DNA of 37,324 nt from an uncultured Halomicronema sp. (GTDB taxonomy: Bacteria; Cyanobacteriota; Cyanobacteriia; Phormidesmidales; Phormidesmidaceae). The notes under the pieces were generated by a model. That model was not told the DNA's origin and ran no database searches. It worked only from the letters and a program-made list of their open reading frames with translations. Below, one piece after another: positions 10,229 through 36,099 of this stretch. The number at the start of each line of letters is the position of its first letter. Positions within the stretch are counted from its first letter, which is position 1. Position numbers and translations under genes: made by a program. Location: assembly GCA_937899725.1 (NCBI GenBank), contig CALCCA010000085.1, positions 1 through 37,324 of the forward strand, written 5' to 3'.

Positions 10229-10586
10229 GCGATCGCCCAACTCTCGCCATACGTCTAAGGTGGGGGCCGCCCAAAGTCAGGATAATGAAGCCACACCGGG
10301 TAAAAGGACGCTGTGTTGTGGCGAAGTCAGACAAAAAGCGGTTGTTAGGACTGCCGCGCCTGCAGGCCGGTAAGCGCAGTCAAAAACGCGGCAATATCGC
10401 GCAAACCCTCCGTCAGCGGGAGCTGTCGCGGGTGAGCGGACGCTTCAGTTTCTTCCGCAGTCAGGCGCTCTATCGCATTTACTCGGTGGTGCCCGCGCGC
10501 TATCGCTGGCTGCTGCCGATGCTGCGCGACTCGTTGCCAGGCGTCGCTGAGGCTGAGGAGGCCGAGACTGAGGCGGCGGCGATCGC
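10229..10586 (+). repeat. 358-bp duplication (copy 2), 5' region of the pseudokinase gene
   Basis: The intact counterpart of 5393-5750, again framed by GCGATCGC at 10229-10236 and 10579-10586. It includes about 90 nt of upstream DNA, so any promoter or leader signal of the first gene of the CIS cluster exists twice in the window. Confidence 0.85.
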
Positions 10587-12702
10587 GGCTGAGGCGGCGG
10601 CACTGGCCGAACCGCTGGTGGATACCTTACTGCTGCCACCACTTGCCCCAGGCACCAAACTGTTGGGCCAGCTCGGCAGTTACCGGGTCGAAGCCCAGAT
10701 CAGCGTGCGGGGGCGCGGTCGCGTCTATCGAGGGTGGCGCATTGGCAGTGAGCAACCGGTCAGCCTGCGAGAATATTTGCTGCCGCCCCAGCAGTTTAGT
10801 CAGGCCGAAATTCGCCAGCGGCAAGCTGGGTTTCGCGATCGCGGTGGGTTGGCGCTAGCCGACGGGCGGCCCGAACGGTTTCGGTTGATTCAGCCGCAGG
10901 ATGCGATTCCCGACCAGCAGGAACCTCGCTGCTATCTCATCGGCTTTAGCGGCTTAGACCTGTTGCCCTCCCTGCGGAGTCATTTAGAGCAGCAACCTCA
11001 CCCCTGGGCAGCGCCCCCAGTCTGGCGCTTTTTTAACCAGATTTTGCAAACGTTGGAGTCGCTGCATGGGCAAAAATATGTGGTGCCCGCCGGCCAGGTG
11101 CGACCCGGTCTCGTGCATGGCAATCTCAGCCTTGATAGCGTCTTAATCGATTGGCCTGATGATCCAGCACTGGCGGGTGATCCGCAGTTTTTGATCTATC
11201 TGACCGACTTGCAGCTCTGGGAAAACCTGTTTACGCCGCCCCAAGACAGTTTGCCGACGACGACTGTAGCCGACGATTTAACGGCGGTCGGGCAGATCGG
11301 CTATCAATTGCTGACCGGGGCGGCGATCGCTGAGACTGAGGGCCGCGATCCGCGTCAGCCCCAAGACTGGCCCGCTGCGGTGCAGCCGCAGCTGCGAGAC
11401 TTTACCTATCGCCTGTTGGGACTGCGGACGCCCTTTGCCAGTGCCGAAGCGGCGCGGCGGGCGATTCCGCGCGATTGGCAATTGCTGGCTGCGACGCCGA
11501 TCACCGATGACTCAACGGATCTAGAGGAAACATCCCGCCCGCGCTGGTGGCGCTGGCTGGTCGCCGCCCTCATCTTGGCACTGTTGGGGGGCGCGTTAGG
11601 TTGGTGGTTGACCCGTCGCCGGCTGGCGATCGCTAGCCCCAGCGGGCCGCCCCAGCTCTGTTGCTTTGCCGAAGCGGTGGGGGTACCACGGGGACGCTTT
11701 ACCTATGCCGGTGAGAAGGACAGCCTGGGCGCTTACGTGCTGCGGCAGAAGAACTTGGTCTTTCCTGACATGACGGTGGAAGGGGCAATTGAGGCGGCCT
11801 ATCCCGAGGTGGCTCTGACCTATCAACCGCTGGCAACAGATGAGGCGGCGATTGGCACCGTGCTGGATGAAGAGGCGGATTTTGCCCTATCGGCGCTGTT
11901 TGGCAACAGTACCCGGGCCGTGTTGCCGCTGCCACCCACCGTGCAGTCAGTGCCCGTGGCCCACGATGCGATCGCGGTGTTTGTCGCCTTTAGCTATGCC
12001 GAGCGATCGCGGGGCCTGCCACAGGGGTTGCAGGGGCAGCTGACCTTTGAACAACTGCGACAGCTCTACACCGGCCAAATCGTGAACTGGCAGACGCTAG
12101 GTGGGCCAGACTTGCCTGTGCAGCTCTATGTTCCGTCAGAACCCGACCTCGTGGCCATTTTTGAACGGCAGGTGCTACAAGACCCCACGGCGATCGCCAC
12201 CTTTCGCTCACTCTTAGAGTCACCCGCCACCTTTACCGATGAGGCAGTCACGGATCGCCCCCCAGTGAAGGTGTTGCGCACCTTTGAGATTTTACGCGGG
12301 GTGATTCAAGATTTTGAAGCCGAGGCGATCGGCAGCATTGGCTTTGGGCCGCTGAGTCAAGTGTTTGGTCAGTGTTCGGTCTATCCGCTGGCGCTGCAGG
12401 CCGAGGAGGGTGAATTTGTGCAGGCGATCGCCGATGGCCAAACGGGACGGGCCATTGACCCCACCATCGACCTCTGTCAAGACAAGGGTAGTTATCGCCG
12501 CGACTATACCGCCATTTTGACCGGCCACTATCCCCTCGCCTATCCCCTAGAGGTGATTTTTCCCTACGACAATAGTCGGCCCCCCATGGGGCGCAAGGTG
12601 GCCGAAATCTTGCAGTCTCAAGAAAGTCAGCTGCTGTTAGAACGAGCGGGCCTCGTGCCCATCGCAGAGCCGGAGCCCGCGTCGCCCCGTCGCCAAAACT
12701 AG
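10318..12702 (+). CDS. Membrane protein: degenerate protein-kinase domain, TM helix, PstS-like substrate-binding domain
   Basis: 794 residues from a GTG with an AAGGA site 8 nt ahead; an ATG at 10285 is in frame but poorly spaced from any such site. Residues 1-110 are basic then Ala/Glu-rich. Residues about 115-385 follow a Ser/Thr-kinase layout but lack catalytic residues: VSLREYLLP where the Lys strand should be, LVHGNLSLDSVLI instead of HRD...N, and LTDLQLWENL instead of DFG, so it is a pseudokinase. RWLVAALILALLGGALGWWL (about 413-432) is one TM helix flanked by Arg. Residues 445-790 resemble a phosphate/PBP-like binding protein (GRFTYAGEKDSLGAYVL, FEQLRQLYTGQIVNW). With the kinase side inside, the binding domain is periplasmic or lumenal. 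It stands directly ahead of the CIS structural genes on the same strand and may be a sensor for the particle. Confidence 0.75.
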   Translation: MAKSDKKRLLGLPRLQAGKRSQKRGNIAQTLRQRELSRVSGRFSFFRSQALYRIYSVVPARYRWLLPMLRDSLPGVAEAEEAETEAAAIAAEAAALAEPLVDTLLLPPLAPGTKLLGQLGSYRVEAQISVRGRGRVYRGWRIGSEQPVSLREYLLPPQQFSQAEIRQRQAGFRDRGGLALADGRPERFRLIQPQDAIPDQQEPRCYLIGFSGLDLLPSLRSHLEQQPHPWAAPPVWRFFNQILQTLESLHGQKYVVPAGQVRPGLVHGNLSLDSVLIDWPDDPALAGDPQFLIYLTDLQLWENLFTPPQDSLPTTTVADDLTAVGQIGYQLLTGAAIAETEGRDPRQPQDWPAAVQPQLRDFTYRLLGLRTPFASAEAARRAIPRDWQLLAATPITDDSTDLEETSRPRWWRWLVAALILALLGGALGWWLTRRRLAIASPSGPPQLCCFAEAVGVPRGRFTYAGEKDSLGAYVLRQKNLVFPDMTVEGAIEAAYPEVALTYQPLATDEAAIGTVLDEEADFALSALFGNSTRAVLPLPPTVQSVPVAHDAIAVFVAFSYAERSRGLPQGLQGQLTFEQLRQLYTGQIVNWQTLGGPDLPVQLYVPSEPDLVAIFERQVLQDPTAIATFRSLLESPATFTDEAVTDRPPVKVLRTFEILRGVIQDFEAEAIGSIGFGPLSQVFGQCSVYPLALQAEEGEFVQAIADGQTGRAIDPTIDLCQDKGSYRRDYTAILTGHYPLAYPLEVIFPYDNSRPPMGRKVAEILQSQESQLLLERAGLVPIAEPEPASPRRQN

Positions 12703-12772
12703 ACTTTGGTCGAATAGGTTTCCGGTCGGGGGTTGGCCACAATGGACGCAATCATCAGGGGGACTGAGGGGC

Positions 12773-13054
12773 ATGAATCGCTTTCCATTTCCGTGGGCGG
12801 GCGATCGCCACATTGCCCAGGGTGACTGTCGGTCGTCGCCGTTGCCGCCTGTCCGGGTCACCCGTGCCGCTGGGTATGCCGCCCCGGCTGGGGTGCAAAT
12901 CTCAGCGCGATCGCGCCATCGTCTGGGTCGCACCGCCCGCCAGGTCAGGCGCAATCCCCATTTGAGGCGGCAGTTGAGCGAGCGCCTCTATGCCCTCTGG
13001 CAAGCCGAGCAGCGACTGCAGCGCGATCGCGATCGACCCAACTTAGACCGATAG
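12773..13054 (+). CDS. Small basic CIS-cluster protein of unknown function (93 aa)
   Basis: A 93-residue Arg-rich protein placed between the pseudokinase gene and the tube gene. The first 55 residues are Pro/Arg-rich without family features. The end, LRRQLSERLYALWQAEQR, LQRDRDR, looks like an amphipathic helix and shares the pattern L-x4-Y-x-L...[RH]-D-R-[DE]-R with the extreme C-terminus of the giant protein at 13594-18834. That likeness and the operon position support it as real. The ATG has a GAGGGG site only about 2 nt away, so the true start may be downstream. Possibly a small baseplate or tube assembly factor; this is inference. Confidence 0.5.
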   Translation: MNRFPFPWAGDRHIAQGDCRSSPLPPVRVTRAAGYAAPAGVQISARSRHRLGRTARQVRRNPHLRRQLSERLYALWQAEQRLQRDRDRPNLDR

Positions 13055-13078
13055 TCAGGGTGGCAAGGTAGGTCAGCA

Positions 13079-13597
13079 GTGTCTTTTTCCGTCGATCAAC
13101 TCCAAAACTACGTCACCTCACAGCGGTTTTACGTCTATATCGAAGGGGATAGTGAGCCCTCGGCCTGCTTTAGCGAATGCTCTGGCTTGTCGTATAAGGC
13201 CAAGGTCAAACGCTTTTTTGAAGGGGGCGCCAACAACCGCGAGCGCATCTTGGTGGGCCAACCCAAATTTAAGGAAATTAAGCTGAAGCGGGGCGTCAGC
13301 GACAACATGGTGTTTTGGGACTGGATTAACCAGGTTTGGAATCCCGACCCCACTCAGCCCGGCATTCGTCGCAATATCAGCGTGGTGGTCTTTAACCCAG
13401 CGGGGCAAGGCATCCAGTGCTGGACGGTGATTGGCGCATTCCCCACCAGTTGGAAGGCCCCTGCCCTGAAAGCGAAAGCAAAAAACTTAGCCCTAGAGGA
13501 ACTGCGGCTCGCCTTTGAAGGGTTAGAAGTCTCGACAACGGTCGTCTCAGGCGCAACGCAGCTGAGTGGTCGCGATGAGACGGGAGAATTTGGATGA
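13079..13597 (+). CDS. Tail tube protein, T4 gp19 / Afp1-Afp5 family
   Basis: A 172-residue protein with the gp19-like tube pattern: YVYIEGDSEPSACFSECSGL near the start, KVKRFFEGGANN, IKLKRGVSDNMVFWDWI, RNISVVVFNPAG, CWTVIGAFPTSWKAP, and LALEELRLAFEGLEV near the end. Members stack as hexameric rings to form the inner tube of contractile particles. Length fits the family (about 145-175). It starts with GTG and ends overlapping the next gene by ATGA. eCIS clusters often carry two or three tube paralogues; only one is seen here. Confidence 0.92.
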   Translation: MSFSVDQLQNYVTSQRFYVYIEGDSEPSACFSECSGLSYKAKVKRFFEGGANNRERILVGQPKFKEIKLKRGVSDNMVFWDWINQVWNPDPTQPGIRRNISVVVFNPAGQGIQCWTVIGAFPTSWKAPALKAKAKNLALEELRLAFEGLEVSTTVVSGATQLSGRDETGEFG

Positions 13598-16500
13598 CGA
13601 TTACCCCGATGGCGGCGGGGTCAGTGGCCTCACCTGATCGCCCCCTGGGCGCTAGCCCAGCGCTGGGTACAACGGTTATTTCACCCAAGCTGATCGCCCC
13701 CTTGGGAGCGCAATCGCTCACGGTGTTGCAGCCGTTTCCCAATGCGCATTGGGTGGCCGAGGGTGAAACCGCTCAGACGGTACCCCTACAGGCGCGATCG
13801 CAGCCGCCATCAGAGACCAATACCGGGTCGCCCGCCCGCACCGAGGGCGCACCCGCGATCCAACCCGCCGCCGCCGAGCCAGCACCGACCTCATCAGATT
13901 CACCGGCCTCAGGGCGATCTCCGATCATTCAAACCGCGATGGGGGCAGCCCCAGCATCCCCCCCCGCCCCGCGATCGCCAGAAACGCCTGCGGGAAACGC
14001 CGCCACGCCAGTTCCCTCTCTACAAGCACAATCAACCCAAACGCCATCCACTGATTCTGCGACATCGCCCTCCCCAACCTCTCAGGAAGCCGTCGCCTCA
14101 GCTCCCCCACCATCGCCCCCCACCGCACCCTCAACTGCGGCTCCAGCAGTGCAGGCGCAAGCAGCCCCAACCCCTACGCCCCCTGCCGAAACACCCCCAT
14201 CGACTACTGCACCGACAACACAAGCGCAAGCGGTGACCCCTCCCCCCCCTTCTGTTGAAACTGCACCATCCACTGCTGCACCCTCAATACAGACGCAAGT
14301 CGCACCCCCTTCCACACCTGCTCCTGAAGCAACAGCATCAGCTGCCGCGCCATCATTACAGGCGCAAGCGGCGAATCCCTCCACATCCCCGACCCAATCT
14401 CCTGAGGTACAACGCTCGCCGTCGGGTTCTCCGCCATCAGCCGATGCCCCAGCAGCAGCGCTGCCGTCTGCACCGTTAGCATCAGGGAACTCACCCAGTT
14501 CACCTCAAATTCAAGCCAGTTCGGATCCGCAACCACCCATATCAGCGCCGCCGCCCCGCCCAACGACAACATCCCCTGTGGTTCAAGCGCAATCAGAACA
14601 AAGTGCCTCGCCACCAGCAGCCCCCGCTCCCCTGGTTTCATCATCAGCATCGTTAACACCCGAAAATTCACCCCAGTCACCCACCGTTCAAGCTCGGCCA
14701 ACCCCGCAGCCACTGGCATCAGCGCCAGAGCCAGCCCAGACGACGACGGCATCCCCTGTGGTGCAAGCACAGTCAGGAAATGACACACCATTACAATCGT
14801 CGTCTGCTCCCCCCACTCCAGCAACGGCATCAGCGACCGGGTCGCCGCCGTTGGCGCCCGATCGCGCGTCCAGTCCAGCATCAATTCAAGCGCAAGCGAT
14901 GCCGGAGCGATCTCCCCAGGTTGCGGCTGAATCGCCCTCACTGCAGGCGCAGCCAGACCCGGCTTCACTGTTAATGCCCACCACCGCTGCCCCCAGTCCA
15001 CCTCAAATCCAAGCCAGCTCAGCCGGAAGCCCCCAGCCAGATTCGATTACCCCGCCTGCGGTGCAAGCAGCAACGGATGCAAGCTCAGCCGCAACACCCC
15101 CGCCGCGATCGCCCGACTCGTCACCGACCATGGCCACCACAGTAGCCCAGGCGATGCCCACCGTACAGCGTCAGAGTGTTGATGCGGAGCCGAGCGTGCA
15201 GCGATCGCCCTCAACGGGCCTAGACAGTTCACCCGCCGCGCCGGCTGTCCAGCCCGCGCAGCCAACGACAGCGGAACCCTCTACATCGAGCGTGGATGGG
15301 ACGATTCAGCAACAGAGCGGCCCGGCCCCAACTGCCCTAAGCAGATCAACTCCCAACGGCGAGCGACCAACGCCCCCAACTGCCGAATCGACTCAGCCGG
15401 ACGTTCTGCAGCGCTCACCCGATCTCATGACACCCCCGGCAGCGGATGTCACCATTGCGCCATCGCCGTCACCAGTCAACGTCCCGCCGACTACGGACAG
15501 CACGACACCCGCGTCCGATACGGCGACACCCCCTGTTCAGCGGCAAGCTGCGCCTGCCAGTAGCCCGGCAATAATCTCCCCGCAACCTGCCGCTTCATCT
15601 GCTGCCAGCCCCACTAGCTCCGCCAGTTCAGACTCACTGGCCGTGCAACGCCAAGACGATGCCACCGGAGAGATGAGTGGACAAAAGTTGCCGAGCACCG
15701 CCGCAACGACACCAGTTCAGCCAGCGACGGTGACACCACCCGCAACGGTGCAGCGATCGCCTGCGAATACTCCTGACACCTCTGCCGTCAGTAGCTCACC
15801 CGACGCCTCCCTGCCGACATCGGGAACCCCGTCCGCCGTGCCGCTACAGCGCCAATCGGCATCAGCCTCTGAGAGATCAATGCTCCCGACGATAGACGGC
15901 CCCACTAACGCACCCAAGATTCAGCGATCGCCCACCGCTACCGCATCGGCAACTGACGGTTCAGTACAGCGGCAGACAGACTCTACAGTTCAGGCATCAC
16001 AGACGGTTCAAGCGTCACCGACAGCGGTGGCGGGAACCTCCCCAACACCAAGCAGTGAGGCTGCTCGCCCGACCGTGCAGCGATCGCCCGCTGCACCGGT
16101 ATCAGCACCAGTTTCTACAGGGCAGGGTGAGGTAGAGTGCGCCCCTACAACTGCTGACAGCCCAGCCATACAGCGACAACCGGTTCCGTCACCTACTATC
16201 GCAGAGCCAGCCACCGCAGGCATCACGCCCAGCGAATCGTCGCCTCTACAGCGATCGCCCGACCCCGATAGCGCTGTTACGTCACCCGCAGCCGCCGGCG
16301 AGGTTGCCGTACAACGGCAAGCGGACTCATCGCCATCAACTCCGATCGCCCCCGCACAGCCAGAGGCAACGTTGGCGACAAATTCGGTGCAGCGGCAAGT
16401 GTCTTCAGGATCGCCAGAGGTGTCGTCACCACCGACGAACGGGGAGGGCGATCGCCCGACCGTGCAGCGATCGCCGGATAGCGCAGCAGTCAGCCCCCCA

Positions 16501-18834: not shown

Positions 18835-18856
18835 ACCGATGGGGGGAGGGCGCTAA

Positions 18857-22016: not shown

Positions 22017-22049
22017 TAGTTAGCAGCAATCCCTCAGAACTGCAACCGG

Positions 22050-22377
22050 ATGGCGATCGCGAAGCTGTGGAATACAGCTCTTTGATGTGCTCCTGACAAA
22101 TCCAGAGGACATCGCCCTCTGGAGTGGTGGTGCGAGTCAGGCCGCCCCAAACCTGGTTAGGGTCTTGGCGCCTGAGAAATTCGTGCAGGGTGCGCAGGGC
22201 GGCCCCGCTGATTTTTCGGGTGTGGCCAGGAGGGTCATTATGCTTAAGGAAGCTGTGATCGCCATCGTCGAATTCAGTCTCTGGCAGCTTGCTGATGAGG
22301 GTTAGCTGAGGACAGGTCGTTTTGGCCTGGAACATTTGCAATAGTGCAGAGACTGTTGAAGGAACTGTCAGATTCAA
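22050..22377 (-). pseudogene. Relic of the C-terminal part of a larger protein
   Basis: On the minus strand the frame reads ALLQMFQAKTTCPQLTLISK, DDGDHSFLKHNDPPGHTRKI, SGAALRTLHEFLRRQ, VWGGLTRTTTPEGDVLWICQ, EHIKEL. This looks like real protein and recalls the tail of large cyanobacterial leucine-rich-repeat or GTPase-type signalling proteins, though I cannot name the family with certainty. There is no proper start codon (only a TTG near 22377) and no upstream part. The frame then runs into the 3' end of the spike gene. It is best read as a leftover from an insertion or rearrangement in the CIS cluster. 22378-22537 holds nothing else I can name. Confidence 0.45.
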
Positions 22378-22537
22378 GCAGGGTTACGACATAATTTAAG
22401 GAGAACTTTTTGTCGTGCCTAAAGTATTGGGAAGTGTTTGGTCAATCATGGGCGCGATGCGCTTCATCAAAGGAGCGTGGGCTTGACTACTACCCATCAT
22501 TATTAAAGTGACTCTACTTCTCTAACTCCCGCTTGTA

Positions 22538-23179: not shown

Positions 23180-23316
23180 ACGTTTGGGAAGCGAATGTTT
23201 TCAGTCCTCAAAGAATAAGTGATATAAACGTTTTCGCAAGACTCGCCAAAGGTCGAATGTCGGGGCCAGCGCAACAAGATACACCTGGAACAGGCACCCA
23301 GGAACTCTAAACCGCT

Positions 23317-27183: not shown

Positions 27184-28581
27184 ATGACCGGTTTTCTTAG
27201 TCCTCATCCCGCCTCTCTCCCGGTTGCCGCGATCGCCCCGCTGCGACGCTTGGCGGTGCGCAACGGTCTGCTGCTGGATGCCGAACGGTGGCAGGTAGCC
27301 CACGACTACCATCGGCAGCGTCAAAACCTGCACTATCAGGCTCTGCACCTGCCGGGCATCGTCTGCGGTCTCGAAGTCGCGGTGGGGCCACCGCCCGCTG
27401 AGGTCAGCGCCCGCTATCGTGATCAGCGCTGGCTGCAGGTGAGTCCGGGCGTGGCGATCGACGCCCACGGCAATCTGGTCGTGGTCGATCAGCCGGTGTC
27501 GGTGCATCTAGCCTCCCTGGCCGAGGCGCAGCCCCACTGGGTCTATCTGGTGGTGCGTCACGTGGATCCCGAAGGCCTGCAGCGATCGCAGCCCACTGAA
27601 ATCATTGCCGAAACCTTTCGCCTGGACGAAAAGAAGCAGCCCCCCGGCCCCTTAGATATTGAAGTCTGTCGCATTCTGCTGCCCCCCAGTGACGGCCCGC
27701 TCTTGCCCGCCGCCGATGTGTTTGCCCCCGATGTGGGCGAGATCGATCTGCGGTATCGCCAGCAGGCGCAGCTGCGGCCCCAGGCGTTGGTCAAAGTCGC
27801 CTATGCCCAGACGGCCCTAGCCTCGGAAGATCAGCGGATTCGCCACAGTCTCGAGACGCTGTTGGCTGCCACCCAGGCCCTGTATCCGGCCCTGCAGGGG
27901 GAAGCCGACCTGCAGGCGGTTGATTTAGGGACATCCGAGACGGCATCACTCGAAACCGCGCCGCCCGCCCTGGTGGACTGCGACCTGTTTTATCTCACCC
28001 ACCGCCAGTGTTTGGGGCTGTCACCGCCCGCGATCGCGACGCTGCAGCGACACCTGCATCAGGGGGGCGTACTGCTGGTCGAGCTGCCCAGCCGCGACGG
28101 CAATTTTGAAGAGATGCACGCCATCGGACGCGAACTCGACACCGCTGTAGCCGATCTGCAGGGCTCCCAACGCTTTGCCGATCTGCGATCGCAATTAGCC
28201 ACTGAACAGGTGGCCGTCACCGAGAGTTTAGACAGTCGCCTTGCCGCTACCCAGCAGGCCCTGCTGCTGCATTTGAGCCAGCCGGACTGGACCCCGCCCC
28301 CCCTGGCGGCTCCCCCAGAGGATCATCCCCTGCGGCGATCACCCTTCGCGTTTTCACAATGGCCGGTGATTCGCCAGGCACCCCTGCGGCTCTACAGCGG
28401 CGGCGGCATCGTGCTGGCCCTGGGCGATTTATCCCTCGCTTGGGCCGCTAGCTCCGAGCTGGCCCTGCCGCGTGACCGGGTGCGTGCCGCCCACGAGCTG
28501 GGCATTAATCTGCTGCACTTTGCCTGGCAGCGCCACCACTGGACGCAAATTCAACAGTCCGCGCCAGTCGCCCCGGTTTAA
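27184..28581 (+). CDS. CIS-cluster protein with DUF4159-like C-terminus (465 aa)
   Basis: Residues 20-110 (RNGLLLDAERWQVAHDYHRQ, NLHYQALHLPGIVCGLEVAV, LQVSPGVAIDAHGNLVVVDQ) match an N-terminal module seen in proteins next to baseplate genes of cyanobacterial and other eCIS clusters. Residues about 255-460 recall DUF4159 (VDCDLFYLTHRQCLGLSPPA, LQRHLHQGGVLLVEL, and near the end HELGINLLHFAWQRHHW). No TM segment or signal peptide is seen, so it is probably cytoplasmic and baseplate-attached. It follows the tail-I gene after the C-rich tract, with no usual ribosome-binding site. Function unknown. Confidence 0.75.
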   Translation: MTGFLSPHPASLPVAAIAPLRRLAVRNGLLLDAERWQVAHDYHRQRQNLHYQALHLPGIVCGLEVAVGPPPAEVSARYRDQRWLQVSPGVAIDAHGNLVVVDQPVSVHLASLAEAQPHWVYLVVRHVDPEGLQRSQPTEIIAETFRLDEKKQPPGPLDIEVCRILLPPSDGPLLPAADVFAPDVGEIDLRYRQQAQLRPQALVKVAYAQTALASEDQRIRHSLETLLAATQALYPALQGEADLQAVDLGTSETASLETAPPALVDCDLFYLTHRQCLGLSPPAIATLQRHLHQGGVLLVELPSRDGNFEEMHAIGRELDTAVADLQGSQRFADLRSQLATEQVAVTESLDSRLAATQQALLLHLSQPDWTPPPLAAPPEDHPLRRSPFAFSQWPVIRQAPLRLYSGGGIVLALGDLSLAWAASSELALPRDRVRAAHELGINLLHFAWQRHHWTQIQQSAPVAPV

Positions 28582-28642: not shown

Positions 28643-30835
28643 ATGTCTTCGCCGTCCGCTGCTCCGTCTCAATCACCGCTACACCGGGTCAAGCATCGCT
28701 TTGGCCTCAAGGTCAAGCTAACCGGCATGATGCTGCTGACCATTAGTGCCATTGCAGCGATCGTCCATATTCCCTGGGTCTATATCTCTCGCCAAAACGT
28801 CAAGCAAATGGTCAGCGTCCTCCACGATGAGGCGTTTAAGGGGGCGCAAAACGATGCGGCGGCATTCTTCGATAATGTGTTGGCGATTCAGCACATTATT
28901 TTGAGCAGTCTCAACAACGGCCTGATTGATTTAGAAGACCCGGCCGGCCAAGGGCAGCTCTATCTCAATCTGCTGCACGCCCACGAAAACATTACCTGGG
29001 TGCAAATCGGTTTCGCCAATGGCGACTTTTTGGGGGCGCAGCGGCGGGCCGATGGGCTCTACAACCTCGACGTCCGGCGGTGGGACGACACCCTGGGACA
29101 ATTGGCTGAGCCAGGCACTGATCTGGCGGCCCAACAGCGCGATCGCGCCCAGCAGGCCGCAGTCTTTGAACAAACCCAAGCGGCTAACATCAGCCCTGGT
29201 CAGCTCGATTGGCAGGTGCGCACCTTTGACTTTGTTGAGGCGGAGGATGCCTGGCAGCAGGTCGATCAAACCCAGCGCGACGAGTTTTACTTTTCTCCTC
29301 AGCGCCCCTACTATCAGGCGGCACTGGCGACGCCCGGCGAGTCCGTGTGGACTGATGTGTATCGCTTCCGCACGGGCAATGTGGTGGGACTCGATGCCGC
29401 GATCTCCTATGAAGATCCCGAGACGGGCATCCTGCAGGGCGTCGTCAGCATTTCTTTTGGCCTGCGACGGATTTCGGAGTATTTGTCCGATTTGAAGCAG
29501 CCGGGCGAGGGCCTCCTCTTCATTGTCGATAGCGCCGGTAATTTAGTGGCGGCCAGCGACCCCGCAGTGCTGGCCAGCACCTTTGAAAGTGAAACCGAGG
29601 CCGAATTACTCGCCCTCGCAACCGTCGATAATCCCCTCCTGCAGGTGGTAAATCAGTCCCTGGACGAACACGATGTGGATCTGCAGGAGCTGGTGGATCT
29701 GCAGGAGCTGTCACAGTATGACCCCATCACCGGCGAACGGTATTACGTGGCCGTGAGCCCGCTCGGCCGGCTGGACTGGGTAATTGGCAGCATCACGCCG
29801 GAAACGGTTTTTTTAGAGCAGATCGATCGCAACCAACAGCGACTGCTCATCATCATTCTGGTGTTGTTGGGGGGCGGCATGATTATCCTCTGGCAGCTGA
29901 GCGATCGCCTGCTGATTCGGCCGATTGTGTCGATCAGTAATGCGGCGATCGCGATGGAATCAGGCAACTTTGCCGGCGTTGCCCTGACTGAGACGACTCA
30001 GCGCGATGATGAACTCGGGCGCTTGGCAGAGGTATTTCAGAATATGGCGGCGGTGATTGGCGATCGCGAACAGAGTCTGAAGGCCCAGCTCGAAGATCTA
30101 CGCGACAGCGGCAGTGAGATGGCGGGCAGCCAGCTTGAGGTGGCCTATTATCAGGCTCTGACCGCCCGCGCCACCCAACTCCGGGCCGTGTCCGAACCGG
30201 CGGTGACCCCATCGTTTCCCCCCGCTGATTCGTTAAGTGCCTACTATCGGGCGTTAAAAGAGCGGGCAGCGGCGGTGCGGGTGACCCGCATTAGCGGGGG
30301 TGAAGTGGAGCAAATGCTGCGCCAGGAAGAGTACCTTGCTACTTTGCCCGATGGCGACCTGCGCGAATTAGCCAGCGGGGCGCAGCGCCAGACCTATGGA
30401 GTAGGTGAACTGATTTTCCGAGAAGGCGATGCCGCCGACACCGTCTATGTGCTGGCCGTCGGCACTGTCGAAGTACGCTCCACCAGTGATGACAGCCCGC
30501 TGCGGGTGCTGCAGCCAGGGCAGATCTTTGGCGATTTGACCCTGATGCTCGACGTGCCGCGCACCGCCTCCGTGCGCCCGCGCGACCCCACGGTCGTCTT
30601 CACCCTTGATGAAGCGTTGTTTAGCCGCATTTTGCGCCACAATCCCCAGGCCCAGCCCGCCGTTGAGGCCAAGCTGATGCAGCATCAAGACGTGTTGGCG
30701 GATGCGCAAATCTGGCTGGGCGAAGGGCAATCGCAGCTGGCTGCTGGGGCCACCTGGCGCGACCTCGCCAGTCAACAGCTGCAGCAATGGTGGCGGGGAC
30801 CGTTAGTGGAACACTCCAGGGCAGACCGGCCATGA
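28643..30835 (+). CDS. Membrane sensor: TM-Cache-TM-HAMP with C-terminal cyclic-nucleotide-binding domain, no output enzyme
   Basis: A 730-residue protein from the ATG at 28643; the frame is open further upstream but overlaps the previous gene. TM1 about residues 28-50 (MMLLTISAIAAIVHIPWVYI), an extracytoplasmic dCache-like region about 50-385 (AFFDNVLAIQHIILSSL, PYYQAALATPGESVWTDVYR), TM2 (LLIIILVLLGGGMIILWQLS), HAMP (RLLIRPIVSISNAAIAMESG, RDDELGRLAEVFQNMAAVIG), a helical linker, and a cNMP-binding domain near the end (GELIFREGDAADTVYVLAVG, GQIFGDLTLMLDVPRTASVR). The usual kinase, cyclase or GGDEF output is missing, so the signal probably passes to a partner. An 18-bp perfect tandem repeat at 29675-29710 doubles VDLQEL. 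The next gene overlaps its stop by ATGA, which ties it to the CIS operon. Confidence 0.85.
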   Translation: MSSPSAAPSQSPLHRVKHRFGLKVKLTGMMLLTISAIAAIVHIPWVYISRQNVKQMVSVLHDEAFKGAQNDAAAFFDNVLAIQHIILSSLNNGLIDLEDPAGQGQLYLNLLHAHENITWVQIGFANGDFLGAQRRADGLYNLDVRRWDDTLGQLAEPGTDLAAQQRDRAQQAAVFEQTQAANISPGQLDWQVRTFDFVEAEDAWQQVDQTQRDEFYFSPQRPYYQAALATPGESVWTDVYRFRTGNVVGLDAAISYEDPETGILQGVVSISFGLRRISEYLSDLKQPGEGLLFIVDSAGNLVAASDPAVLASTFESETEAELLALATVDNPLLQVVNQSLDEHDVDLQELVDLQELSQYDPITGERYYVAVSPLGRLDWVIGSITPETVFLEQIDRNQQRLLIIILVLLGGGMIILWQLSDRLLIRPIVSISNAAIAMESGNFAGVALTETTQRDDELGRLAEVFQNMAAVIGDREQSLKAQLEDLRDSGSEMAGSQLEVAYYQALTARATQLRAVSEPAVTPSFPPADSLSAYYRALKERAAAVRVTRISGGEVEQMLRQEEYLATLPDGDLRELASGAQRQTYGVGELIFREGDAADTVYVLAVGTVEVRSTSDDSPLRVLQPGQIFGDLTLMLDVPRTASVRPRDPTVVFTLDEALFSRILRHNPQAQPAVEAKLMQHQDVLADAQIWLGEGQSQLAAGATWRDLASQQLQQWWRGPLVEHSRADRP

Positions 30836-33033
30836 CGAATAAGATTCTCCGCGAGGTGTGGGACAAATTAGACGATCAGGGGATGACCACCCCCGCCTCC
30901 ACTGAAAAAAATCTCGACGTCAGCCTCTCGGCCAAAAGCCTGGAGCTGGTGCCGGGGGAAAGCATCGCTGAGCTGGCGATTACCGTGGTCAACCAGAGCG
31001 ATCGCCGGGCCAGCTTTCAGGTGGAAATTTTAGCGGCGGGTCAAGATCCGCGGGTGACGCTGCGCTGGTATGACCTGTCGCCAGAGGTCAGCAGCGTTAA
31101 GCCGCCGGGCGATACCACGCAGTTTCGTGTTGCCCTGGTCGATAGCCCCATTGTTGGATTCTTTGGCTGGGTCAGCCTGACTGTGCGGGTATTTTCGTTG
31201 GAACTCAAAACGGAAGAGCGGCAGGTCCTGCGGCTCAAGGTAGTGCCCCCCGCCGGGGCCATCCCCCTGAAGCTGGAACTGTTGACGCCGATCTTGCGCA
31301 GTCGGCCCGGTCGCACCACACGGCTGCCGGTGCGTATCTACAACCTGGCACAGCTCACCGTGGGGGCGTTGGTGCGCTGCGAGGGCCTACCGCTCGATTG
31401 GTTTGTGCAAGATGCTGAGCAGGCGATCGACCTGTTGCCCCAGCAGTGGACGACAACGGAATTTGCGATTACGCTGCCCGCCCCCGCCGAAGCCCTGGCC
31501 GAGGCCCTGCCGCTGCGAGTGCAGGCCGAAGTGCCGGGCAGCGTGCCCGCGATCGCCGAAGGCCGCTTCGAAATTCTGCCGGTGGGGCGGCTGGCCTTTC
31601 GGCCCCCAGTGCCGACGCAACAGCGCCTGCCCCGCACTTGGCGACGGCGAGAAATGCCGCTGCCCGCCAGCTATGAGCTGACCTTTGAAAACGCCAGTAA
31701 TCTAGTGCCCACAGTGACGCTGGCGCTCAATAGCGAAACGGCGGACGACCTGCAGTGGGCTTTAGAGCCCGATGACACGCCCTGGTTGCCGGGTACGGTG
31801 CAGGCCAAAACCCTGCAGGTGTGGGCGCGGCGGCCCTGGCTGGGGCGCACCCAGACCCACGTGATTGAGGCTCAGGCGGCTGTCTCGGACGAACGGCTTG
31901 GCCCCCCGGTCCCGGCCAGTCGACCCTTGCAGCTGGATGTCGCCCCGGTCGTGCCCGCCTGGCTCGCCCTTTTGGGAGGGCTGGGCCTACTGTGGCTGCT
32001 GTGGCTGTTGTCTTGGCTGAATCCGGCCAATGGGCTTTTTGGCCATCAAGCCGCTGTCAATAGCGTGCAGTTTGACGGCTTAGGCGAAACCATTGTCAGC
32101 GGTTCTAACGACCAGACGGCGCGGTTTTGGCGCCGCCGGAGCTTTGTCAGACCACTCGAAAATCATGCCCTCGGCCCGGTGGCGACGGCGGATAAGGCCC
32201 TGCGGGTGGCGCGCTATCGACCCCTCAACAATGATCAGCTGGCCGTGGGTTTAGAAAATGGCGAAATTCAACTGTGGGATCTGCTGCGCCAGGAGCAATT
32301 GCTGGCACTCGCGGCCCCCAATCAGCGCGACGATCGCGTCTTAGATGTGCTTTTCACCCCCCATACCCCAAGCTTGTTGAGCAGCCACGGCAGCGGCGCC
32401 GTGTTGCGCTGGGCGTTAGGCCCCGAGGCCGATGTGGCGGGCGACAGTCGCCTCTTGCAGACGGCCCAGTTTGACTTCGCGGCCTACAGCTTGGCGGCAG
32501 TCGGCCCCGAGGGCACCATGATTGCCGTGGCTGGCCGCTATAACCGGCTAGAGCTGTGGGATTGGCAAACCGATGAGCGAATGGCGATCGCGGACTTTGC
32601 CGGCGGGCAAGACGATTACATCACCAGCTTGGCCACCGCGGCGGCCCACCCCAAATGGCTCGCTGTGGCCGATAACCAGGGGCAAATTACGCTGCTAGAT
32701 TTGAGCCCCTGCCTCTCGGGCAACGCGGCCTGCCGCACCCTCGATCGCTGGGCTGCCAGTGAGGATGGCCAATCAATTCGGGCGATCGCCCTGACTCGCT
32801 CGGGCTGCTATCTCACCAGCGTTGGTGATGATGGGCAGGTCAAACTGTGGCCGCTCTCACAAGGGCGACGGCACGGTCGCTTTGCAGCGGGCAAAACCCT
32901 CGCTCGCCTGCCGCAGCCGCTCAACAGTGTAGATATTCGGCTCAAACGCAATCAGCTGTGGCTGGTATCCGGCAGTGACGACAGTCGCGTGCGGGTGCAC
33001 CGTTCACCCTTGCAGCCCACCGACTGCCGCTGA
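30832..33033 (+). CDS. Ig-like - TM - WD40 membrane protein of the CIS cluster
   Basis: A 733-residue protein; the ATG at 30832 overlaps the previous TGA. Residues 1-370 hold two or three Ig-like beta-sandwiches (KSLELVPGESIAELAITVVN, VRIYNLAQLTVGALVRCEG, SYELTFENASNLVPTVTLAL), without signal peptide. One TM helix at about 374-396 (VPAWLALLGGLGLLWLLWLL). Residues 400-733 are a WD40 propeller (FGHQAAVNSVQFDGLGETIV, SGSNDQTARFW; SVGDDGQVKLWPL; VSGSDDSRVRVH). If the N-terminus stays inside, the propeller is outside the cytoplasm. The first Ig module resembles those of the tail-I protein and of the next gene. Likely an anchor or receptor element of the particle (inference). Confidence 0.85.
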   Translation: MTNKILREVWDKLDDQGMTTPASTEKNLDVSLSAKSLELVPGESIAELAITVVNQSDRRASFQVEILAAGQDPRVTLRWYDLSPEVSSVKPPGDTTQFRVALVDSPIVGFFGWVSLTVRVFSLELKTEERQVLRLKVVPPAGAIPLKLELLTPILRSRPGRTTRLPVRIYNLAQLTVGALVRCEGLPLDWFVQDAEQAIDLLPQQWTTTEFAITLPAPAEALAEALPLRVQAEVPGSVPAIAEGRFEILPVGRLAFRPPVPTQQRLPRTWRRREMPLPASYELTFENASNLVPTVTLALNSETADDLQWALEPDDTPWLPGTVQAKTLQVWARRPWLGRTQTHVIEAQAAVSDERLGPPVPASRPLQLDVAPVVPAWLALLGGLGLLWLLWLLSWLNPANGLFGHQAAVNSVQFDGLGETIVSGSNDQTARFWRRRSFVRPLENHALGPVATADKALRVARYRPLNNDQLAVGLENGEIQLWDLLRQEQLLALAAPNQRDDRVLDVLFTPHTPSLLSSHGSGAVLRWALGPEADVAGDSRLLQTAQFDFAAYSLAAVGPEGTMIAVAGRYNRLELWDWQTDERMAIADFAGGQDDYITSLATAAAHPKWLAVADNQGQITLLDLSPCLSGNAACRTLDRWAASEDGQSIRAIALTRSGCYLTSVGDDGQVKLWPLSQGRRHGRFAAGKTLARLPQPLNSVDIRLKRNQLWLVSGSDDSRVRVHRSPLQPTDCR

Positions 33034-33137
33034 GGCCGTTAAAACATGGTGAGACTTTGCCCCCCTGCCTCCGACCGCTCCGATAATCATGAAACCCAGT
33101 AAACGCTACGCATCCCGAACCCTCAGCAATAAAAAAC

Positions 33138-33243
33138 CCACTCCCTAGCCCCCTGCTCCCTAGCCCCCCTGCTCCCTAGCTTCCCTACCCCCCTACTCCC
33201 TTACCCTCCTACTCCCTCGCCCCCTTACCCTCCTGCCCCCGCT
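33138..33243 (+). repeat. C-rich tandem-like tract before the 950-aa gene
   Basis: Units like CTCCCTAGCCCCCTG repeat with small changes for about 105 nt and end CCCCCGCTGCG at the ATG at 33247. The opposite strand carries many G-runs and could form G-quadruplexes. The 100 nt before it (33034-33137) shows nothing else. Confidence 0.75.
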
Positions 33244-33246
33244 GCG

Positions 33247-36099
33247 ATGCCTGTCAACCGCGATCAAAAATTGAACCTGCTGCGCTCTGTCGATTGGGTC
33301 GTCAACCCGTCGGGCGAAGTGGCGATCGCCAGTGGCGACACGTTAGAGCTGCGCGTCACGTTGATGAACCAGGGCCATCAGGGGGCCGTTTTTGACGTCT
33401 ACCTCGATGAAACGGCAGAGCCCGTGCGCCACTGGTGTCGCGAGTCGTTTCAGCGCTTAGCCCTGGACGCGCAACAGTCGGCGGAGGTAGTCTTTCAGCT
33501 GGAGGTGCCGCTGCAAACCCTGCCCGACGCCTATGAGTATCTGTTGGTGCTCGATGCGCCCCAGCATTACCCAGAAGAAACGCCGCTGCAGCATCAATCA
33601 CGCCTGCGAGTGTTGCCGCCCGTGCAGTCGGCGGAGCAGACCAAAGATCCCACCTTTCGCGTCGTGCCGGAGACAACGCCCACTCAGCCCCTGCTGCTGC
33701 GGCCCGGTCAGCCCTTAGAGTTTCAGGCGGTTGTTCACAATCGCTCGGATCGGGTCGATCGCTTCCGGCTCACCTGCGCCGACCTGCCCGAATCCTGGTA
33801 TCGCATTGTCTACCCCGAGGGGCTGCAAAACCTGGGGCAGGTAATCAGTCGCGACAGCTTACTACTCAACCCCGGGGCCGAAGGGCGCATTCTGCTATTG
33901 TTGCAGCTGCCTGGCGACGTCCCCGCCGGACAACACCTGCCGACGCTGCGACTCCACACCGCCAACCATCCGGATCTGGTGCTGATCGACGTCGCCTATC
34001 TGCAGGTCGCGCCCCACTTTGCCCTTGACTTGCACCTGCGATCGCAACTGAGCCGGGTGCAGACCGGAGCGGGCACCTATGAACTGATACTGGTGAACGG
34101 CAGCAACACGCAGCGCTCCCTCACCTTGACGGCTCAGGAAACCGCCGAAAATCCGGTTTGCACCTATGAGTTAGCGACAGCTGACCTGACGCTGGCACCT
34201 GGTGCTACGACCACGGTGCCGCTGGCGGTGCAGCCGACGCGGCGCTGGCGGCGGCCTTGGTGGGGCCGGGGGTGGGCCATTCCCTTTTATGTAGAAGCGC
34301 AGGACACACTGGCGCTGCGGGCCGATCGTGATCGCGTCGAGGGTGAGCTGCTGTGGGAAGCGCGGCCCTGGTGGCAACGGCTGTTAGCGGTGGCGCTGAT
34401 TATTGGCGGTCTGACGGCCATGGGCTTGCTGATTTGGCTGGCATTTTTTCGTCCCCCGGCGCGGCTACAGGTGGCGGAGCTGGCCGCCGAGGGGGAGCTG
34501 TACGAAGCAGCGCAAAATGACTTTATCCACCTGCGATGGCAAGTCGGGCCACCCAGCGCCATTCGCTCGCTGCAGCTGACGGGGCAGGCACTGTCGGGTG
34601 ATCGCGACCCGGCCCCGCTGACCTACGATCTGAGCGACGGCCTACCCCCCGAACTGCAAGATATTTGCACGATCACTCGGCGCTGGCTCACCTGTCGCTT
34701 TGTGCGCACCGATGCTCGTCAGCCCGGTGACTATCGCTTTGAGCTAACGGCTCTGCCGCGCCAAACCAGCCAAGCGATCGCCACGGCCGAGAGCGAGTCG
34801 ATCACCATCAACCCACTGCCCGACCCGCAAATTGCCCGGCTGACCAGTCAGCTCATGGCCTGGAAGCCGCGCCCCGACATTGCTACGGCAAACCGCTCGC
34901 CGCGATCGGCCTCTCTGGCGAATCCGTTGGCGGCGTTTCCCTGGTTGTTTCAAGGGGCGATCGCGCCGATTAATCTGGCGCAGCTGCCGGATCAGATTTT
35001 GGTATTAGCCTGGCAGATTGCCCATCCGGGGCAGCTCACCCAGCTCGAACTCACGGGGCGGGCGGCGGATAGCAGCCGCGATCTGCCCACGCTCACCTGG
35101 CCATTGGCGGCCGGACTGCCCGAAGAACTGCAGCCGTTTTGTCAGGTGAGCGATCAACAATTGAGCTGCCAGCGATTTCCTGCGGCGGTGCAGGCGGGTG
35201 AATACGTTTTTGAGCTGGCCGCCCGCTATGGCATCACCGCCGATGACCCAGTGGGCACCGTGCTGACGGCAGCGACCGATCCGCTGCAGCTGGTAGCGCC
35301 CCCCGCGCCCGAAATCTTGGCCTTCGCCCCCGATCGCTTCACCTATGACGCGGGCACCACTGGCCCGCTACGCCTGGGCTGGACGATCTCCCATCCCGGC
35401 CAGCTGCAAACCGTGCGCATTATTGGGCGATCGACCGATGGTCGCGTCAGCGTACCGCCCTTTCAATTCACCTTTAGCGGCGGCATGCCCCCGGCGCTGG
35501 CCAATTTTTGTCAGCTCAGTGCGACCCAGCTCACCTGCAGCGGTGTCCCGATCGAGTTTGACCAACCCGGTCAGTATCAGTTTGAGTTAGAAGCTGTGGC
35601 GATCGGCACTGGAGGGCAGGCTGCAACCAAGCTGAAGTCAGAACAGATTGATATTGAGGGGAGCACCGCCAATAGTCCCGGCCCGCGGGTGCAGTTCTTT
35701 CGTATTGACGGCCAAAACGCGCCGCCCAAATATACCGTCGCCCTCGACCCCAACGCCCCGGCCCGCGATATTCGCCTGGCCTGGAAAGTGACCGGCACAG
35801 ATTTACAAGTGGAACTCCTGCCTTCCCCCGGCACGGTGCCCGCTGACGCCTTCCTCACCTACGAACTTGGCCCTGGCGAAAAAACGGAAACGCTCACCCT
35901 GCGCGTGACTGATGGTGAAGGACGGCAGGTGCAGCGATCGGTCGTCATTGCAACGACGGTGGCTGCCCCTAGCGCTGCTGCTGAGTCTCTTGGTGCGCCC
36001 GCTGCAGCGCCATCGCCTGCCCCCGTTAATCTGCCCTCATCCGACCGCGATCGCCTCCGCTACCCAGAGCCCAGTAATCCGAGTCCGACCCAACCGTGA
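33247..36099 (+). CDS. Ig-like - TM - triple Ig-like membrane protein of the CIS cluster (950 aa)
   Basis: Residues 1-370 hold Ig-like beta-sandwiches of the CARDB/NEW3 kind (SGDTLELRVTLMNQGHQGAV, RPGQPLEFQAVVHNRSDRVD). One TM helix lies at about 379-401 (LLAVALIIGGLTAMGLLIWL), after an Arg/Trp-rich stretch (TRRWRRPWWGRGW), so the N-terminus is probably inside. The C-terminal part has three homologous repeats of about 120 residues (about 405-530, 575-700, 705-825), each with L-x-W-x(I/V) near the start, G-(L/M)-P-x-x-L in the middle, and a C-x8-C pair (ICTITRRWLTC, FCQVSDQQLSC, FCQLSATQLTC), then a fourth looser domain and a Pro/Ser-rich tail. Paired cysteines suit an oxidising periplasm or thylakoid lumen. 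Last gene of the CIS series in the window; 36100-36335 is non-coding. Confidence 0.8.
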   Translation: MPVNRDQKLNLLRSVDWVVNPSGEVAIASGDTLELRVTLMNQGHQGAVFDVYLDETAEPVRHWCRESFQRLALDAQQSAEVVFQLEVPLQTLPDAYEYLLVLDAPQHYPEETPLQHQSRLRVLPPVQSAEQTKDPTFRVVPETTPTQPLLLRPGQPLEFQAVVHNRSDRVDRFRLTCADLPESWYRIVYPEGLQNLGQVISRDSLLLNPGAEGRILLLLQLPGDVPAGQHLPTLRLHTANHPDLVLIDVAYLQVAPHFALDLHLRSQLSRVQTGAGTYELILVNGSNTQRSLTLTAQETAENPVCTYELATADLTLAPGATTTVPLAVQPTRRWRRPWWGRGWAIPFYVEAQDTLALRADRDRVEGELLWEARPWWQRLLAVALIIGGLTAMGLLIWLAFFRPPARLQVAELAAEGELYEAAQNDFIHLRWQVGPPSAIRSLQLTGQALSGDRDPAPLTYDLSDGLPPELQDICTITRRWLTCRFVRTDARQPGDYRFELTALPRQTSQAIATAESESITINPLPDPQIARLTSQLMAWKPRPDIATANRSPRSASLANPLAAFPWLFQGAIAPINLAQLPDQILVLAWQIAHPGQLTQLELTGRAADSSRDLPTLTWPLAAGLPEELQPFCQVSDQQLSCQRFPAAVQAGEYVFELAARYGITADDPVGTVLTAATDPLQLVAPPAPEILAFAPDRFTYDAGTTGPLRLGWTISHPGQLQTVRIIGRSTDGRVSVPPFQFTFSGGMPPALANFCQLSATQLTCSGVPIEFDQPGQYQFELEAVAIGTGGQAATKLKSEQIDIEGSTANSPGPRVQFFRIDGQNAPPKYTVALDPNAPARDIRLAWKVTGTDLQVELLPSPGTVPADAFLTYELGPGEKTETLTLRVTDGEGRQVQRSVVIATTVAAPSAAAESLGAPAAAPSPAPVNLPSSDRDRLRYPEPSNPSPTQP

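What the first reader, a model, noticed from the sequence alone, without database searches (positions are those of the whole stretch)
10318..36099. Membrane-anchored contractile injection system locus with built-in sensors and no visible sheath
Seen: tube (gp19), CIS_tube, VgrG-like spike, gp25, baseplate J and tail-I genes on one strand, with four membrane proteins in the same series. Known: eCIS clusters normally carry sheath, PAAR, tape measure and AAA+ genes nearby, and cyanobacteria have thylakoid-anchored CIS. Inference: this is an anchored CIS whose missing parts are encoded elsewhere, or a reduced device. The presence of a pseudokinase/PBP protein, a Cache-cNMP protein, a WD40 protein and an Ig protein suggests that ligand sensing is coupled to the particle.
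Basis: partly seen in the sequence, partly recalled or inferred. Interest (0 to 1): 0.82.

Follow-up and report, generated by a model that had tools for sequence, protein, structure and literature searches.

The report
Split cyanobacterial injection system with sensors
This stretch of a cyanobacterial genome encodes the tip and base of one phage-tail-like injection machine, related to the one that kills Streptomyces cells from within, together with membrane proteins that accompany it in other cyanobacteria and may help decide when it fires.

Summary
In detail: one strand (10285-36099) carries the spike/baseplate half of a contractile injection system (CIS) and four predicted membrane proteins, without a sheath. 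The device is neither reduced nor sheathless: the genome's one sheath, three more tube genes, two cap-type genes, an AAA+ ATPase and eCIS-core proteins lie on contig C59. In a same-genus genome the halves are about 3 kb apart; in eleven other genomes sheath and baseplate J are over 0.4 Mb apart.

The closest solved relatives are Streptomyces cytoplasmic (type IId) CIS, not the thylakoid-anchored Anabaena CIS. The membrane genes are real partners: 82 of the 86 (of 388) cyanobacterial genomes with full baseplate J also carry the pseudokinase-TM-PBP, Ig-TM-WD40 and Ig-TM-Ig proteins, sometimes unlinked.

The sensing idea needs splitting. The WD40 and Ig proteins share their Ig-TM part with a Streptomyces CIS-linked family laid out like known CIS effectors. 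The pseudokinase-PBP protein resembles the adaptor CisA in architecture only and has lost kinase and PstS motifs. The Cache-HAMP-cNMP protein is of sensor type, its family lacks output domains, but it is linked in a minority of loci.

Best reading: a new variant of IId CIS that acts on its own cell, perhaps receptor-gated.

The parts
10285..12702 (+). Pseudokinase-TM-PBP membrane protein (CisA-like in architecture only)
   Evidence: PF12849 1e-05, just under its cut-off; HGN for HRD; TM 425-443; kinase and ModA folds (low-confidence model)
12773..13054 (+). Small gene of 93 aa before the tube adaptor; similar small genes before it in several relatives
   Evidence: No Pfam family; phmmer matches in relatives
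13079..13597 (+). gp19-type tube adaptor (Cis5-like)
   Evidence: PF06841, TIGR02241, CIS5
13594..18834 (+). 1746-aa Pro/Ala/Ser/Thr/Gln-rich protein with conserved C-terminal tail; possible lumen or length protein
   Evidence: 67% PASTQ; tail shared with relatives
18857..19894 (+). Cis7-type tube initiator with beta/gamma-crystallin-like tail
   Evidence: PF19266 5.8e-17, PF03995 1.4e-4; crystallin and Afp7 chains
20199..22016 (+). VgrG-type spike (Cis8)
   Evidence: PF04717, NF033848
22538..23179 (+). Uma2 gene at the place of the tip gene of relatives; probably an insertion
   Evidence: PF05685
23317..23748 (+). gp25 baseplate wedge (Cis9)
   Evidence: PF04965
23798..25987 (+). Baseplate J (Cis11)
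   Evidence: TIGR02243 630 bits; 9gtp 1e-103
25989..27080 (+). Tail-I (Cis12) with extra N-terminal Ig-like part
   Evidence: TIGR02242; 9gtp_E covers residues 171-353; Ig profile probability 94.8
27184..28581 (+). DUF4159/CIS13-like baseplate-linked protein without TM
   Evidence: PF13709 2.5e-8, CIS13_fam 37 bits under cut-off, hydropathy 1.37
28646..30835 (+). dCache-HAMP-cNMP sensor, two TM, no output domain (longest frame starts at 28472)
30829..33033 (+). Ig-TM-WD40 membrane protein (longest frame starts at 30787)
   Evidence: PF00400; Ig-TM homology
33247..36099 (+). Ig-TM-Ig membrane protein
   Evidence: Fold model mean pLDDT 73; homology; co-occurrence

Best explanation
The window holds the spike/baseplate half of one type IId-like contractile injection system with its membrane partners; the tube/sheath/cap/AAA+/eCIS-core half sits on contig C59. 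Shown here: the two gene sets, the single copy of each marker gene in the genome, the IId-like kinship, the constant company of three membrane proteins, and a sensor family without output domain. Inferred: the particle assembles in the cytoplasm and is used against the producer's own membrane, as in Streptomyces. The pseudokinase-TM-PBP protein plays the membrane-adaptor part that CisA plays there. The dCache-HAMP(-cNMP) protein, where present, passes an extracytoplasmic ligand and second-messenger signal by protein contact to the baseplate complex. The two Ig-TM proteins (WD40 and Ig ectodomains) are membrane-active, effector-family proteins that may dock through Ig modules like that at the N-terminus of Cis12. 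Firing breaches the membrane and kills the cell.
For: One sheath in the genome, one full J, four gp19 genes, one here and three on C59, one PK-PBP, one WD40-type and one Ig-type gene at the E limits used: one system in two pieces. In the same-genus genome G287 the pieces are convergent, about 3 kb apart. Kinship: sheath 8bky/9gtp 403 bits, Anabaena 7b5h 190; J 9gtp 1e-103; Tail-I 9gtp_E only; 9gtp and 9gts are named as S. coelicolor CIS in PMC12237407, and 8bky and 8bl4 are deposits of PMC10066040. Co-occurrence over 388 genomes: WD40-type 84/86 and 5 outside, Ig 84/86 and 4 outside, PK-PBP 84/86 and 8 outside, all three in 82/86. HRD replaced by HGN or HGR in 18 of 18 PK-PBP proteins. HAMP in 28 of 29 sensors, an output domain in 0 of 29. 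Ig-TM kinship: WD40-type with Ig-type, hhalign probability 99; with Streptomyces CIS-linked proteins E 6e-8 to 8e-11; Cis12 with the Ig-type profile 94.8. Function of the Streptomyces relatives: PMC10066040, PMC10020575, PMC12237407 (passages).
Against: PK-PBP and CisA profiles do not match (hhalign probability 0.3); the likeness is only Zn ribbon-TM-ectodomain, and the window's copy has lost the ribbon. A sensor gene is linked in only 13 of 30 unnamed neighbourhoods, in two of these after the Ig gene, and in 10 of 60 named ones. Sco4256 itself was not compared; the kinship rests on two plasmid relatives and published descriptions. A WD40 propeller and about seven Ig-like domains are bulky for tube cargo, so effector and anchor roles stay open. 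Co-occurrence was not corrected for relatedness. There are no expression, localisation or phenotype data for this system here.
Confidence: 0.55

Rival explanations
1. The Ig-TM-WD40 and Ig-TM-Ig proteins are structural anchors, not effectors: their cytoplasmic Ig domains bind the Ig domain at the N-terminus of Cis12 and hold the baseplate at a membrane.
For: Each is in 84 of 86 CIS genomes, also where unlinked. Cyanobacterial Tail-I/Cis12 is 333-392 aa in 27 proteins against 179-222 aa in three Streptomyces loci, and its N-terminal part matches the Ig-type profile (probability 94.8) and WD40-type profile (88.5). A folded propeller is bulky for tube cargo (inference).
Against: Streptomyces proteins of this layout are reported toxic in E. 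coli, needed for a filled tube lumen, and their loss phenocopies CIS loss (PMC10066040, passages); Sco4256 was found in purified particles (PMC10020575, passages).
Confidence: 0.3
2. A thylakoid-anchored CIS of the Anabaena kind that uses other anchor proteins.
For: The host is a cyanobacterium; [quoted passage not shown] the N-terminal extension of Cis12 here is analogous.
Against: The nearest solved relatives are Streptomyces CIS. Of 62 genomes with only partial or weaker J matches (148 minus 86), 56 carry none of the three membrane genes at the thresholds. The CIS13-like protein has no clear TM segment. Location at a thylakoid is not excluded, only kinship.
Confidence: 0.15
3. An ordinary extracellular CIS released on lysis to attack other cells.
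For: eCIS_core (DUF4157-type) genes accompany the sheath; the DUF4159 gene has a weak match to CIS13_fam, the family of Cis13, the numbering counterpart of the Afp13 tail fibre (37 bits, cut-off 370).
Against: No other tail-fibre family was seen in the window proteins scanned; membrane proteins accompany the system; the IId relatives studied in Streptomyces act inside the producer (PMC10066040, PMC12237407, passages).
Confidence: 0.1
4. A reduced or decaying device lacking a sheath.
For: No sheath in the window; no PAAR (PF05488) or DUF4280 (PF14107) match in the genome; a Uma2 gene stands at the usual place of that gene.
Against: Open sheath, tube, cap-type and AAA+ genes on C59; S. coelicolor also lacks Cis10 (PMC10066040, passages).
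Confidence: 0.02

Closest known systems
Cytoplasmic CIS of Streptomyces coelicolor (type IId)
   Same: Closest solved sheath, baseplate J and Tail-I; order tube adaptor-Cis7-VgrG-gp25-J-TailI in Streptomyces plasmid loci; large Pro-rich protein with a reduced form of the same C-terminal tail; an Ig-TM protein family and a single-pass protein with Zn ribbon.
   Different: Two loci instead of one; Cis12 with an extra N-terminal Ig part; two Ig-TM proteins with WD40 or Ig ectodomains; a pseudokinase-PBP protein without a profile match to CisA; HAMP sensors.
CisA (SCO4242), membrane adaptor needed for firing (PMC12237407, passages)
   Same: Bitopic, cytoplasmic N-terminus, Zn-ribbon pattern in most homologues, one TM, binding-protein-like ectodomain, tied to a IId CIS.
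   Different: No sequence match (against four Streptomyces plasmid proteins at or near the CisA position); pseudokinase added; ectodomain of PBP type here, weak NADase_transloc F5/8 type C match in one of two Streptomyces proteins scanned.
Sco4256-4258 effectors (PMC10066040, PMC10020575, passages)
   Same: N-terminal domain, one TM, variable C-terminal domain; PMC10020575 already noted Sco4256 homologues in IId loci of filamentous cyanobacteria.
   Different: C-termini are a WD40 propeller or an Ig array here, a ricin-type domain in Sco4257/4258; toxicity untested for these.
Thylakoid-anchored CIS of Anabaena PCC 7120 (PMC8894136)
   Same: Cyanobacterial CIS with a baseplate extension.
   Different: Distant sheath (190 bits) and no J match at E 0.001; [quoted passage not shown]

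Membership tests
Type IId (Streptomyces-like) CIS | Sheath closest to the Streptomyces CIS sheath | tested here: met
   8bky/9gtp 403 bits and 8bl4/9gts 394; next 323 (9ezm) and 190 (7b5h, Anabaena)
Type IId (Streptomyces-like) CIS | Baseplate of TIGR02243 J and TIGR02242 Tail-I type, as in Streptomyces relatives | tested here: met
   630 and 112 bits, over the cut-offs; 9gtp matches
Type IId (Streptomyces-like) CIS | Tube, cap and AAA+ ATPase present | tested here: met
   C59: gp19 x3, Pvc16_N x2, AAA+
Type IId (Streptomyces-like) CIS | Position within subtype IId in a tree as in dbeCIS | not tested
   No tree was built; dbeCIS is not held
CisA | Sequence homology over the conserved C-terminal domain | tested here: not met
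   hhalign probability 0.3 between 11 PK-PBP and 4 Streptomyces proteins at or near the CisA position
CisA | Single-pass protein with Zn ribbon and ectodomain, encoded with a IId CIS | tested here: inconclusive
   TM and ectodomain met; Zn-ribbon pattern seen in most homologues but lost in the window's copy
CisA | Needed for contraction in situ | not testable with these tools
   Needs a mutant
Sco4256-type effector family | Homologous N-terminal Ig-TM part | tested here: inconclusive
   E 8e-11 and 6e-8 (WD40-type profile), 1e-10 and 4e-10 (Ig-type profile) to two Streptomyces plasmid proteins of that layout; Sco4256 itself not compared
Sco4256-type effector family | Toxic, loaded in the tube | not testable with these tools
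   Needs bench work
Thylakoid-anchored CIS (Anabaena) | Sheath and baseplate of the Anabaena lineage | tested here: not met
Thylakoid-anchored CIS (Anabaena) | TM segment in Cis13 | tested here: not met
   CIS13-like protein peaks at 1.37; whether it is the Cis13 counterpart rests on a weak match
Protein kinase (PknB-like) | Catalytic Asp of HRD (recalled) | tested here: not met
   HGN or HGR in 18 of 18; kinase-like fold predicted (model mean pLDDT 57)
PstS phosphate-binding protein | SGT phosphate-binding motif (recalled) | tested here: not met
   Absent from 17 of 18 proteins; the one SGT (G296a) lies in the kinase-like part

The most novel reading that the evidence does not exclude
Cyanobacteria run a receptor-gated CIS: a dead kinase joined to a degenerate binding protein, plus Cache-HAMP-cNMP receptors without any output enzyme, form a membrane switch whose output is the contractile baseplate itself, so that an extracytoplasmic ligand and a cyclic nucleotide decide directly whether the machine fires into the cell's own membrane.
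Probability: 0.28. Interest if true: 0.82.

Novelty: new variant of a known kind. Interest (0 to 1): 0.58.

Why it matters
What makes an intracellular CIS fire is open. CisA is the one membrane factor shown to be required in the papers read here (passages), and those passages name no sensor. A set of membrane partners that accompanies the machine in nearly all sampled cyanobacterial genomes that carry it, together with receptors that have no other visible output, names concrete genes to delete and domains to swap. It also means that searches which need all CIS genes in one neighbourhood may miss, or call incomplete, many cyanobacterial systems, since sheath and baseplate are often unlinked.

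Tried and rejected
Sheathless or reduced device: rejected. Kinship with the Anabaena thylakoid type: rejected. Homology of PK-PBP to CisA: profile alignment, no match; kept as likeness of architecture. Catalytic kinase and phosphate sensor: rejected by lost motifs. A PAAR or DUF4280 tip gene in this genome: none found with PF05488 or PF14107 (where nothing rang anywhere; one search then rang in relatives G150, G181 and G266 and weakly in G298, not in G287 or here). The giant protein against the PDB: no match. A profile comparison of the sensor with the WD40 family failed and was not repeated; the line printed for it there is stale. The PK-PBP model is of low confidence (mean pLDDT 57), so only supports a kinase-like and a PBP-like part. 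The Foldseek hits of the Ig model are generic multi-Ig proteins with low TM-scores.

Rules of counting; full J meant at least 460 bits (lowest counted 467, next 398); PK-PBP at least 60 bits; WD40-type any match at E 1e-8; Ig-type at least 140 bits, leaving out matches from residue 73 on, at 28-31% identity, to a separate family (G107, G162, G235, G249, G263), but keeping G137 (from residue 77, 35%, next to its WD40-type gene). The handle lists were copied by hand. The sheath search took 76 of the 86. The 30 neighbourhoods come from 29 genomes picked for contig length and spread, not at random; the simple gene caller missed J in G013. One sensor-profile match there (G147, 831 aa, upstream) was left out as unrelated. 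Two of the 29 sensors are 96% identical.

Inferred, not tested: that the Streptomyces 'hydrolase/hydrolytic protein' genes are Sco4256-type (layout and CIS linkage only).
Full report
What is in the window. The window is contig C85 of a 7.0-Mb cyanobacterial genome, G000 (relatives named are cyanobacteria). On the + strand from 10285 to 36099 lie: pseudokinase-TM-PBP (10285-12702), a 93-aa gene (12773-13054), a gp19 tube adaptor of Cis5 type (13079-13597), a 1746-aa low-complexity gene (13594-18834), Cis7 with a beta/gamma-crystallin-like tail (18857-19894), VgrG/Cis8 (20199-22016), Uma2 (22538-23179), gp25/Cis9 (23317-23748), baseplate J/Cis11 (23798-25987), Tail-I/Cis12 (25989-27080), a DUF4159/CIS13-like gene (27184-28581), dCache-HAMP-cNMP (28646-30835), Ig-TM-WD40 (30829-33033) and Ig-TM-Ig (33247-36099).

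Where the rest is. The genome has one sheath match, on contig C59, in a run of Pvc16_N, sheath, three gp19 tubes, a second Pvc16_N gene, AAA+ ATPase, and two eCIS_core proteins with a TPR gene between them. gp19 occurs four times in all; J and each of the three constant membrane genes match once in G000. It is one machine in two pieces. In the same-genus genome G287 the pieces are convergent with about 3 kb between the Ig gene and the last eCIS_core gene, and the response regulator and histidine kinase beside the sheath end are shared. On C59 the genes scanned beyond the eCIS_core genes are two-component, PAS-kinase and metabolic genes or have no family, so the pieces were rearranged; their distance here is unknown. 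A sheath of this kind was matched in 75 of 76 searched genomes with full J (G189 had none, and G003 gave only a contig-edge fragment). In eleven of them sheath and J lie more than 0.4 Mb apart on one contig (G013, G032, G034, G045, G055, G088, G147, G150, G177, G185, G374); in others they are 5-35 kb apart (for example G154, G236, G133, G287).

What kind of CIS. The sheath matches Streptomyces CIS sheaths with 403 and 394 bits and Anabaena's All3325 with 190. J matches 9gtp at 1e-103 and otherwise only a wedge protein gp31 at 2.9e-5. Tail-I matches 9gtp_E only. PMC12237407 names 9gtp and 9gts as S. coelicolor CIS; 8bky and 8bl4 are deposits of PMC10066040. Plasmids hold relatives of J: four cyanobacterial ones at 50-57% identity, Streptomyces and Deinococcus ones mostly at 33-38%, others lower. 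Pseudanabaena plasmid ABRG53d has the window's order: substrate-binding protein, small gene, tube adaptor, giant gene, Cis7-place gene, VgrG, PAAR, gp25, J, Tail-I, next gene, cache protein, and a protein matching the Ig-type profile at 3e-12 in the WD40 place. The system is IId-like; no tree was built.

Are the membrane genes part of it. Of 388 genomes of the class, 86 have full J. WD40-type N-termini occur in 84 of these and in 5 others; Ig-type in 84 and 4 others; PK-PBP in 84 and 8 others; all three in 82 of 86; Fisher p at most 6e-73, relatedness not corrected for. Of the nine genomes outside, six hold partial or weaker J matches. The genes keep company even when unlinked: in G150 the Ig gene is 1.3 Mb from J, in G287 the PK-PBP gene is 0.8 Mb from J. 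Of 62 genomes with only partial or weaker J matches, 56 lack all three at these thresholds. Within 30 fetched 34-kb neighbourhoods of J (window not counted): gp25 26, Tail-I 26, CIS13-like 24, WD40 23, Ig 18, sensor 13, PK-PBP 8. In the 60 of 80 named loci with at least 9.9 kb downstream of a called J: Tail-I 58, CIS13-like 57, WD40 23, Ig 21, sensor 10, the sensor each time between CIS13-like and WD40. In 29 of the 60, many of them Nostoc, only Tail-I and CIS13-like follow.

The pseudokinase-PBP protein. Eighteen proteins show HGN or HGR where kinases have HRD, and none keeps an SGT motif in the PBP part (motif meanings recalled). A low-confidence model (mean pLDDT 57) still finds kinases (best 8.6e-9) and a ModA binding protein (1.4e-6) in the PDB. 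Most homologues have an N-terminal Zn-ribbon-like Cys pattern; the window's copy has lost it. Four Streptomyces plasmid proteins at or near the CisA position have a TM-like peak (1.63-2.83); the two scanned have Zn ribbons and one an F5/8-type hint. The profiles do not match. It may work like CisA; it is not a member by the sequence test. PMC12237407 (passages) describes CisA as bitopic and needed for contraction in situ.

The WD40 and Ig proteins. Their N-terminal parts are homologous to each other (probability 99), to Ig-TM proteins of two Streptomyces plasmid CIS loci (E 6e-8 to 8e-11) and to Deinococcus CIS-linked kinase-Ig giants (E 2e-18 and 4e-18, WD40-type profile). The Ig model (mean pLDDT 73) shows about three all-beta domains, a helix at 375-398 and about four more beta domains. 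PMC10066040 (passages) reports that Sco4256-4258, with similar N-termini, one TM and C-terminal domains, are toxic in E. coli, that their loss leaves most tube lumens empty, and that the mutant phenocopies CIS loss. PMC10020575 (passages) noted Sco4256 homologues in IId loci of filamentous cyanobacteria, so this kinship is partly in print. I therefore rank effector family above ligand sensor for these two and keep structural anchor as a serious rival, since Cis12 here carries a related Ig domain (probability 94.8) that the shorter Streptomyces Cis12 proteins have little room for.

The sensor slot. Twenty-nine proteins (16, 13; 28 at 95% identity): HAMP in 28, dCache in 23, cNMP in 15, and no kinase, cyclase, GGDEF or MCP output domain in any at E 0.001. 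The cNMP phosphate-binding pattern (recalled) is kept in 14, the window included with D for E. Some loci hold two or three such genes (L105, L119, L164).

The giant gene. Fourteen proteins at this place (776-2531 aa) are low in complexity. A tail of the form LAxEIYxxLRxRLExERERxG is found by pattern in 9 of 14, and by eye also in the window and Pseudanabaena with one or two changes; in G374 it lies at the end of a second, differently framed stretch; G077 and G161 have only its first part. Streptomyces counterparts carry a reduced form. Position and tail suggest a lumen or length-setting protein held at the spike; this is inference.

Print status. Searches pairing 'contractile injection system' with WD40 and cyanobacteri (one paper, on sponge microbes by its listing), Cache domain (none) and pseudokinase (none) gave no description of this set. 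'hamp' gave 44 papers; of the two checked one holds only forms of 'hamper' and one no whole word HAMP; the rest were not checked. Passages of PMC8213781, PMC12210884, PMC12923769 and PMC12998442 did not describe it. The library holds open-licence papers only.

Noticed in passing
window 5393-5750 and 10229-10586: A 358-bp segment, 90% identical, duplicates the 5' end of the pseudokinase-PBP gene; an ETR1-type histidine kinase gene and a response regulator-PAS-GGDEF-EAL gene lie between the copies.
   Followed up: partly
window 2174-4740 (-): A ParA/MinD-like protein with EAD10 domain next to a TIR-domain protein: a candidate conflict or defence pair.
   Followed up: partly
L098 23788-28566 and L102 18107-22897: Two Deinococcus plasmid CIS loci carry a giant of about 1600 aa annotated as protein kinase whose later part is related to the cyanobacterial Ig-TM family.
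   Followed up: partly
window 22016-23317: The place of the PAAR-like or DUF4280 tip gene in relatives is taken by a Uma2 gene; PF05488 and PF14107 find neither in the genome.
   Followed up: yes
L096, L097, L099: Plasmids of Oscillatoria, Pseudanabaena and Brasilonema carry large parts of such CIS loci, so the system can be plasmid-borne.
   Followed up: no
L002 1039-2863: A response regulator and a histidine kinase gene flank the sheath operon here and in G287: possible regulators of the system.
   Followed up: no
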